Assembly: GCA_947650285.1 (NCBI GenBank)
Contig: CANTFL010000469.1
Location: 1 to 64,000, forward strand
From: Hyaloperonospora brassicae
Taxonomy: Eukaryota; Oomycota; Peronosporomycetes; Peronosporales; Peronosporaceae
Direction of reading: 5' to 3'
Length of the DNA stretch: 64,000 bases
In this document: piece after piece, positions 40,231-41,701 of the stretch
Numbering within the stretch: the stretch's first letter is position 1
Layout: every line of letters starts with the position of its first letter
The notes under the pieces: model-generated
Seen by the model: only the letters and a program-made list of their open reading frames with translations
Told to the model about the DNA's origin: nothing
The model's database searches: none
Made by a program: the position numbers and the translations under genes

Positions 40231-41364
40231 ATGCGTTTGCACCCGACATTCTATGTCGGGCGCCTTAAGGCTTACCTGCCGGCGGATCTCCCTTTGGTCC
40301 TTCCTCACTCGTCTGTATCGGCTCAAAGTCCGACACCCCCTGCCGACGACGCTGACGACGACTGGGACCAAGTCCTAGACGAGCGCGAGCAGACTCGTTC
40401 TGCTGGGGTCCACCGAACGTAGCAGTCTCGAGATGTCGCAGACGCTCCACCAAGCCCTGCTGCTCCCGTCGGGTTCTCTCGGCAGCCTCTGTCGCAGCTG
40501 CTGCACGATCTCGAGCCCTCTCGGCCATCTCACGGGCATCCAGAAGGCCGTTCATCGCCTCTTCAGTGTCAGCACGAAGGAAACGAAGCTCGTCACTCGA
40601 CGGCACAGGCGCCCGATTATGAGAATCGGCGCTTAACCCAAGAAGCCTTCCGTCAAGATGCTCCTCCTCCCTTGGTAGATGCATCGGGTGAGCGACGCTG
40701 GATTTTGGACCGTATCGTCGGTCATGAAGACCCCACGCCTCTTGCGCCGAGTAGTGGCTCGGCGCCATCGAAGAGTCGTTCAGAAACGCATTACAAGGTC
40801 CGATGGTTGGGTTATTCACCAACGGAAGACACGTGGGAGCCTCGAAGTATGCTGTCTCACGATGTTCCTGACGTCGTTGAGGAGTACGAGACCAGTAAGA
40901 GGTCGGCGAACGCGACCGACGCTGCTGACTCCTTTCAAGATCCCGCGAACCGTAACGTGCGTGAATTGGCGATCGACGACGATATCCCGAGCGACTCCGA
41001 CGTCTTCTACGAGGCTCGGGAGCATTTGGATACCTTGACGGTCGAGAGCGACTACGAGAACGACCTCGGTGGTCGTAAGACAAACGATCTCGACTACGTG
41101 AACGACTCCATTTATCGACAGGGCGTTCCCTCATGTGACGCAACGCAGATACTTGGAGCTCTGAGAGGCTCCTCTCATAGCGTCCGATTCATGGTCGGAT
41201 GTGCTGGGGGATTCCCCGTGCACACACCATGTCGTCCCATTCCTGCCGCATTGGTCGCGGTCTCTCCATGTGACACCGTGGACACCCTTCACGGACATGA
41301 ACGTAACACATGTGGAACCCATCACGAGTCGAATGACATACGCGTCGTCGTAAGTCGCCAATAG
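40231..41364 (+). pseudogene. Integrase C-terminus and chromodomain of B, with in-frame TAG
   Basis: LHPTFYVGRLKAYLPADLPL begins the frame; a single TAG at 40,420-40,422 (followed by CAG) interrupts it, and the same frame continues without another stop to 41,364. The chromodomain is at about 40,690-40,890: RRWILDRIVGHEDP, THYKVRWLGYSPTEDTWEPR, VPDVVEEYE. The linker and the 160-codon tail are the mirror of the antisense frame, and low in recognisable protein character. Confidence 0.7.
40265..41143 (-). CDS. Antisense ORF of B, C-terminal part (RS region and coiled coil)
   Basis: 292 codons on the strand opposite pol. Residues 1-95 are Arg/Ser-rich (RSRSRDRLSYDHRGRSRSRS, RRRRRSRSGYRRRSP). Residues about 180-245 form a probable coiled coil (DELRFLRADTEEAMNGLLDA, ERARDRAAAATEAAERTRRE). 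A single TGA (41,189-41,191) separates it, in frame, from the N-terminal part. The order (domain, four Cys, linker, coiled coil) is the same as in family A although sequence identity is low. Confidence 0.55.
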   Translation of the reverse strand: MRHMRERPVDKWSRSRSRDRLSYDHRGRSRSRSRPSRYPNAPEPRRRRRSRSGYRRRSPIHARYGSRDLERSQQRRSRSPTSYWSRTPQRRQEHRETAYFEAPTCLPLVNNPTIGPCNAFLNDSSMAPSHYSAQEAWGLHDRRYGPKSSVAHPMHLPREEEHLDGRLLGLSADSHNRAPVPSSDELRFLRADTEEAMNGLLDAREMAERARDRAAAATEAAERTRREQQGLVERLRHLETATFGGPQQNESARARLGLGPSRRQRRRQGVSDFEPIQTSEEGPKGDPPAGKP

Positions 41365-41701
41365 CGTGGTCGCCATGAGTACTTTCGCGTCCCTCGATCC
41401 AGGACGTGAAGGATGTCCCTTCACGTCGACTCGCGTTCCAGCGTCTGATGAAGGCACACCAAGATCGTTGCAGTGCGTCTTCAGTGTATGTGTGATTCGT
41501 TCCCTTGCCTCGAACGTCACGGTATCGTGTGAAGAGATTCTTCATGGTCTCATGTGATACAGGTTGGTGCGCGCCTTTAAGGCTGTACAATCCCCACGGC
41601 TTCAAGTCGTCATCCATGGTCTGCGGTGCACGCTCTCTTCGAAGTGTCTGATGACACCTACTGTCGTTTAGGGTCGAGTCGCGTGGGTGTTCAGGATTCA
41701 T
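41189..41701 (-). CDS. Antisense ORF of B, N-terminal part (KPW domain and Cys motif)
   Basis: 170 codons from an ATG. MDDDLKPWGLYSLKGAHQ recalls DELKPWRFPERF of family A. RSWCAFIRRWNASRREGTSF aligns with SAWNAFVQNVNNFGRDVWL. A four-cysteine motif C-x9-C-x7-C-x2-C (residues 122, 132, 140, 143; ending GCPRC) corresponds to C-x8-C-x6-C-x2-C in A and C. Conservation of spacing between families whose DNA is otherwise unalignable here is the best evidence that this strand is coding. Function unknown. Confidence 0.65.
   Translation of the reverse strand: MNPEHPRDSTLNDSRCHQTLRRERAPQTMDDDLKPWGLYSLKGAHQPVSHETMKNLFTRYRDVRGKGTNHTYTEDALQRSWCAFIRRWNASRREGTSFTSWIEGRESTHGDHAIGDLRRRVCHSTRDGFHMCYVHVREGCPRCHMERPRPMRQEWDDMVCARGIPQHIRP

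What the first reader, a model, noticed from the sequence alone, without database searches (positions are those of the whole stretch)
40265..41701. Conserved antisense gene in the 3' region of two chromodomain Gypsy families
B (this region) and A/C (18,204-19,802; 25,819-27,417; 59,709-61,401) all carry a long frame opposite to pol, between integrase and 3' LTR. Protein order is the same: a region with D-x-LKPW, R-[YH]-R and S-x-[WA]-x-F-[VI], then C-x8,9-C-x6,7-C-x2-C, then a polar or RS linker, then a coiled coil. DNA of B and A is not alignable here, so shared spacing argues for protein-level conservation. Antisense ORFs are known in some plant Gypsy elements; I know of no description of this one in oomycetes. 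It could be an RNA-binding or regulatory protein made by the element.
Basis: partly seen in the sequence, partly recalled or inferred. Interest (0 to 1): 0.92.

Follow-up and report, generated by a model that had tools for sequence, protein, structure and literature searches.

The report
Antisense gene in oomycete chromodomain retrotransposons
A group of oomycete jumping genes carries, on the strand opposite to its enzymes, a second gene for an unknown protein that natural selection has kept working, reminiscent of the backward genes of some plant retrotransposons and of a human leukaemia retrovirus.

Summary
Intact relatives exist in the same genome: a B copy open over 505 codons, a related family 'D' with 20 copies open over exactly 465 codons, and A-type copies, 52 of 150 scored being stop-free over 539-540 codons. 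The gene starts 76-153 nt from the 3' LTR and in D overlaps the pol tail and chromodomain by about 280 codons. Outside pol the wobble position moves to the antisense frame: D lineage substitutions fall 5/25/5 there against 12/10/54 in pol, singletons being flat. A copies repeat it. Pooled dN/dS is 0.36-0.48. Homologues occur in 11 named Peronosporales species. Dual selection inside the overlap is only suggestive (A) or unclear (D). Not shown: transcription, function, or homology of A to B/D proteins (p 0.03-0.05). Best reading: a nuclear regulatory or RNA-associated protein from a 3'-LTR antisense transcript, working like plant antisense ORFs or HTLV-1 HBZ, but a different protein family.

The parts
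41192..41701 (-). B antisense gene, N-terminal part: 170 codons with KPW, RYR, SWCAFI and four-Cys motifs (Cys motif 41270-41350), broken off by the stop at 41189-41191
   Evidence: 100% self match and relatives
40265..41188 (-). B antisense gene, C-terminal part in the same frame: RS-rich linker (40880-41113), APT motif (40799-40843), coiled-coil part (40421-40585)
40678..40896 (+). B pol chromodomain, opposite the antisense RS/APT part
   Evidence: Chromo found by Pfam in the related D pol
40423..41364 (+). B sense frame with chromodomain and pol tail, overlapping the antisense gene
34366..34685 (+). B 5' LTR, approximate (320-nt match to the 3' LTR, 97.8%)
41855..42174 (+). B 3' LTR, approximate end; 153 nt lie between the antisense start codon and it
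18204..19677 (+). A1 antisense gene, broken into two frames (18204-18935, 18892-19677)
25819..27292 (+). A2 antisense gene, same sequence and break as A1, offset 7615
60193..61314 (-). C antisense gene, N-terminal and middle part, one internal stop; the rest is in another frame

Best explanation
These chromodomain Gypsy elements carry, besides gag and pol, a real antisense protein gene that starts just inside the 3' LTR and reads back over the end of pol. Shown: the frame is intact in young copies; the lineages that gave rise to copies kept its protein under purifying selection where pol does not overlap; homologous proteins occur across Peronosporales. Inferred: a transcript starting in or beside the 3' LTR is translated into a nuclear protein whose helical Cys-containing domain binds nucleic acid or a partner, whose RS-rich (B/D) or charged (A) disordered linker brings it to RNA or nuclear bodies, and whose coiled coil makes it dimerise. 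Most likely it acts on the element's own RNA or chromatin (RNA processing or export, transcription from the LTR, or nuclear steps before integration). I put about 0.93 on a real protein gene, about 0.65 on a nuclear nucleic-acid-associated product, and less on any one of the listed actions.
For: 20 D copies open over exactly 465 codons and 52 of 150 scored A-type hits stop-free over 539-540 codons (counted by hand). Pooled dN/dS 0.36 (D), 0.45 (B), 0.48 (A) against 0.92-1.32 in frames +1, +2, -0, -2. Wobble switch: shared D changes 12/10/54 in pol, 5/25/5 beyond pol, P 5e-6 for 25 of 35, singletons 69/68/63; A 16/18/35 and 30/58/27. Homologues in 11 named species. Start codon 76-153 nt from the 3' LTR in D, A and B. 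D model: confident helical domain over residues 31-180, disordered RS linker, helix 367-424; 24 RS/SR dipeptides in residues 186-330.
Against: No transcript or peptide evidence. Frame -1, which shares the wobble column, also gives 0.49-0.54. B copies have too few shared changes to test position (9, 6 and 3). In the D overlap, stop-creating changes are not depleted (13 observed, 12.2 expected), and antisense-synonymous changes are not faster than changes nonsynonymous in both frames (0.077 against 0.097), so selection on the C-terminal half is not shown in D. No fold or family match gives a function.
Confidence: 0.6

Rival explanations
1. The open antisense frame is a by-product of pol codon usage and base composition; no protein is made.
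For: In the D overlap position counts are near flat and antisense stops are not depleted. The only strong A to B/D match lies opposite the chromodomain.
Against: About 186 codons of the D frame and about 330 of the A frame lie beyond pol, where there is no sense frame to copy; there the wobble switch and low dN/dS hold. Openness has P 2e-5 for the overlap.
Confidence: 0.04
2. The antisense RNA, not the protein, is what matters (for example as a source of small RNAs against the element).
For: P. infestans small RNAs map to Gypsy Pi-1a in both orientations (PMC3522703, passages). A review of plant antisense ORFs raises RNA-level regulation (PMC7264820, passages).
Against: An RNA function does not predict third-position-biased change in the antisense frame.
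Confidence: 0.06
3. A and B/D carry two unrelated antisense genes gained independently at the same place.
For: Non-overlapping domains match only at p 0.03-0.05. B/D have an RS linker and A does not (24 and 22 against 0 RS/SR dipeptides in residues 186-330).
Against: Same place, same phase relative to pol (worked out by hand from coordinates), colinear W-x-AF[IV] and Cys motifs, and pol of one clade (RT 55-56% identical).
Confidence: 0.3
4. The proteins are ordinary host genes or secreted effectors that happen to be near elements.
For: Three H. arabidopsidis entries among the A-type relatives are named RxLR effector candidate.
Against: The one entry compared aligns over most of its length with the second half of the A antisense protein, coiled coil included. 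All 20 loci have the frame opposite integrase and chromodomain matches.
Confidence: 0.03

Closest known systems
Antisense additional ORFs (aORF-3R) of LTR elements: Grande gene23, RIRE2, Retand ORF4/TRP28, PvRetro13 in plants; Boty in Botrytis (PMC7264820 passages and section 5; PMC11963269 passages)
   Same: Antisense protein gene at the 3' side of a Gypsy-type element, conserved across copies and species, thought nuclear or DNA-associated
   Different: No Transposase_28 (PF04195) match in the antisense proteins scanned. Here the element has a chromodomain and the frame overlaps pol by about 280 codons in D; the cited plant ones are described as lying between pol and the 3' LTR
HBZ of HTLV-1 and other retroviral antisense genes (PMC10186651, start of abstract in a listing only)
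   Same: Antisense gene at the 3' LTR end, C-terminal coiled coil (bZIP nature of HBZ partly recalled)
   Different: No bZIP family listed by Pfam; MafG chains match the A coiled coil only at E 0.74-0.81; no antisense transcript known here
Chronos, chromodomain Gypsy elements of oomycetes (PMC5348765, passages)
   Same: Oomycete Gypsy elements with a chromodomain
   Different: Chronos is defined by an added archaeal/plant-type RNase H, not found by Pfam in D pol; the word antisense does not occur in that paper's main text

Membership tests
Ty3/Gypsy element with chromodomain | RT, RNase H, integrase and chromodomain in one pol | tested here: met
   Pfam on D pol L014: RVT_1, RT_RNaseH, Integrase_H2C2, rve, SH3_Tf2-1, Chromo; B pol homologous along its length
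Antisense aORF-3R class (positional class) | Conserved antisense coding frame at the pol to 3' LTR end | tested here: met
Antisense aORF-3R class (positional class) | Antisense transcript | not testable with these tools
   no RNA data held
Retand TRP28 protein | Transposase_28 domain (PF04195) | tested here: not met
   not listed at E up to 1 for 2 + 9 + 31 antisense proteins
HBZ-like bZIP factor | bZIP domain | tested here: not met
   no bZIP family listed by Pfam at E up to 1; MafG E 0.74-0.81 on the A coiled coil only
Chronos | Additional archaeal/plant-type RNase H | tested here: not met
   not listed for D pol L014 at E up to 1; A and B pol not scanned
Tyrosine recombinase core-binding domain (name on P0035) | Match to a recombinase family or fold | tested here: inconclusive
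   no Pfam or PDB-sequence match; A model too poor to compare
One gene family for A and B/D | Significant similarity outside the overlap with pol | tested here: inconclusive
   hhalign P 0.028-0.053; profile alignment reached by 5 of 150 column shuffles, p 0.033

The most novel reading that the evidence does not exclude
An old antisense accessory gene, spread across Peronosporales, is genuinely dual-coded with the chromodomain end of pol: both strands of the same DNA are under protein-level selection, in the phase where the antisense wobble falls on the sense middle position and the sense wobble on the antisense middle position. Its product, a helical Cys-domain plus RS plus coiled-coil protein without known relatives, would be an element-encoded nuclear regulator, a counterpart of HBZ that arose independently far from animals and plants.
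Probability: 0.35. Interest if true: 0.82.

Novelty: new variant of a known kind. Interest (0 to 1): 0.66.

Why it matters
Antisense genes in LTR elements are described in plants, a fungus and some retroviruses. Four searches of the held library that named oomycetes, Phytophthora or downy mildew (only without an antisense term) listed no description of one in oomycetes; papers outside that library were not seen. Here selection on an antisense frame can be read from a shift of the wobble position beyond the pol stop, with neutral singletons in the same copies as a control. It adds a protein family without a recognised domain, shows that at least one 'RxLR effector candidate' entry is an element product, and offers many intact copies in which antisense expression can be tested from existing RNA data.

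Tried and rejected
Whole-protein hhalign of A against B/D looked significant, but the aligned stretch is opposite the chromodomain, so I rejected it as evidence; the domains beyond pol give only p 0.03-0.05. The name 'Core-binding (CB) domain' on P0035 suggested a recombinase domain; Pfam and PDB-sequence searches gave no support. The A model is too poor for a fold comparison (mean pLDDT 46). Antisense-stop-creating changes seemed depleted in the D overlap when counted per copy but not as unique events (13 against 12.2 expected), so I do not use that. I looked by eye for a shared antisense promoter in the LTRs printed and found nothing I would defend. No significant PDB or BFVD fold match came up; the domain was not folded alone, so this is no evidence of a new fold. 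P0070, listed with Pfam PF09429, aligns with an A-type antisense protein.

Full report
What is in the window. B is a chromodomain Gypsy element whose LTRs share a 320-nt match at 97.8%; its 3' LTR starts at 41855. Opposite the end of its pol lie 170 minus-strand codons (41192-41701), a stop at 41189-41191 and, in the same frame, 307 further codons. A1, A2 and C show the same order but are broken: A1/A2 change frame, C has a stop and changes frame.

Intact copies. The B piece searched in the window's own genome (100.6 Mb, 898 contigs) gave 121 matches, many of them broken. Two are long B copies: L009 with 505 open antisense codons and L010 with 329. Twenty matches, 41-43% identical to B, lie in stop-free frames of exactly 465 codons; I call this family D. 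Of the 20 loci, 2 are B and 18 are D; 16 of the 18 D loci hold the 465-codon frame, one holds 457 codons and one is broken. In 12 of the 20 a single sense frame of at least 1291 codons runs through the overlap. The A-type query gave 2644 candidates, of which the tool scored 150; 52 of the 150 lie in stop-free frames of 539 or 540 codons, by my count of the table. Six A loci and three search loci were read in full.

Anatomy. In D element L014 pol ends at 4798 and the antisense frame runs from 5357 down to 3963: about 186 codons beyond pol and about 280 opposite it. The N-terminal domain lies beyond pol, the RS linker opposite the pol tail, the APTY motif opposite the chromodomain, and the coiled coil opposite the linker between integrase and chromodomain. 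Against the D copy L015, the match of 14 of 16 other copies ends within 8 nt of the same point; the other two run into a contig end. The D LTR is 327 bp, and 76 nt separate it from the antisense start codon; the gap is 130 nt in A and 153 nt in B. In all three families antisense position 1 faces sense position 1, antisense position 3 faces sense position 2, and antisense position 2 faces sense position 3 (worked out by hand from coordinates).

Is it coding? (a) Openness: in the same phase opposite the rest of D pol there are 50 stops in 1320 codons, longest opening 129; in B, 50 in 1231, longest 107. P for 278 open codons is 2e-5. (b) dN/dS, pooled over pairs: 0.36 in D (26 sequences), 0.45 in B (14), 0.48 in A (10). 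Frames +1, +2, -0 and -2 give 0.92-1.32; frame -1, which shares the wobble column, gives 0.49-0.54. The B pieces reach partly into the pol tail. Single pairs of the intact D copy with older copies give 0.17-0.28, and of B L009 with older copies 0.39-0.55. (c) Codon position: ten older D relatives (all ten; L077 and L078 matched in two blocks) were compared with L014. Changes shared by at least 3 of 10 fall on sense positions 1/2/3 as 12/10/54 in pol-only DNA, 16/13/22 in the overlap and 5/25/5 in antisense-only DNA. Singletons are flat: 260/228/232, 113/92/106 and 69/68/63. P for 25 of 35 is 5e-6, for pol-only against antisense-only 2e-9. In 11 A sequences minor alleles present at least twice are 16/18/35, 39/45/26 and 30/58/27 in the same three regions; P for 58 of 115 is 1e-4. 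B has too few shared changes (9, 6 and 3 in 8 sequences). So beyond pol the antisense frame behaved as a gene in the lineages that made copies, and old copies then decayed neutrally. Inside the overlap the evidence is suggestive in A (45 against 26 changes at antisense and sense wobble, P 0.03). In D it is unclear: the pattern differs from pol alone (P 0.007), but antisense stops are not depleted (13 against 12.2) and antisense-synonymous changes are not faster (0.077 against 0.097).

Distribution. The D protein finds 30 proteins. Named sources are Phytophthora capsici, megakarya, infestans, idaei, fragariae, cactorum, nicotianae and rubi, Peronospora matthiolae and destructor, and Hyaloperonospora arabidopsidis; where a name is given it is hypothetical, uncharacterised or unnamed. 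The A protein finds 9 and its profile 47, from Hyaloperonospora, Peronospora and unnamed sources. Only the candidates sharing most words were scored, so these lists are lower bounds. One H. brassicae protein is 98% identical over 227 residues, so the window is probably from Hyaloperonospora. Pfam: no family reaches its cut-off in the four antisense proteins whose cut-offs are shown; among the other members the best E-value is 2.5e-4, a coiled-coil family in one protein. I could not fetch Phytophthora DNA, so the antisense position there is not tested; it is suggested by the APTY/APMY motif, which lies opposite the chromodomain in D and is common in the Phytophthora proteins.

A against B/D. 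RT-region identity of A or C and D pol is 55-56%, against 24-27% for other Gypsy remnants at 1.6-11.4 kb. The domains beyond pol match only at p 0.03-0.05, the best alignment pairing the W-x-AFI and Cys motifs in order. The stronger match of the full proteins lies opposite the chromodomain in both. One diverged gene is my preference; two genes are not excluded.

How it probably works (inferred). A transcript from the 3' LTR region encodes a nuclear protein that dimerises by its coiled coil and binds nucleic acid or RNA-processing factors by its Cys domain and RS or charged linker, acting on the element's own RNA or chromatin. Plant antisense ORFs (PMC7264820 passages and section 5; PMC11963269 passages) and HTLV-1 HBZ (PMC10186651, start of abstract in a listing) are what it works like. 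By the tests made it belongs to neither protein family: no Transposase_28 and no bZIP family was listed.

Known or new. The positional class is known. What differs is the protein family, the host group, the chromodomain element and the long overlap with pol. Searches of the held library naming oomycetes, Phytophthora or downy mildew listed no description; two of the listed papers were opened in passages (PMC5348765; PMC3522703).

Noticed in passing
L033:2-730 and 478-1710; similar in L031, L034, L035, L038: In A-type copies the integrase frame and the following frame with the chromodomain overlap by about 250 nt in different phases, at the same place in several copies: a fixed frame change in an abundant family, perhaps programmed frameshifting or help in trans.
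   Followed up: partly
17708-33266: A1 and A2 are identical units spaced exactly 7615 bases, apparently sharing a middle LTR: tandem elements by recombination, or an assembly duplication.
   Followed up: no
36317-36778: A 66-base tandem repeat (22 residues) within the B gag/protease frame.
   Followed up: no
P0056 (also P0039, P0061): H. arabidopsidis proteins named 'RxLR effector candidate' among the A-type relatives; P0056 aligns with the second half of the A antisense protein, so the name looks like a misannotation of an element product.
   Followed up: partly
1600-11400: Gypsy-like remnants only 24-27% identical to D pol; neither antisense profile matched there.
   Followed up: no
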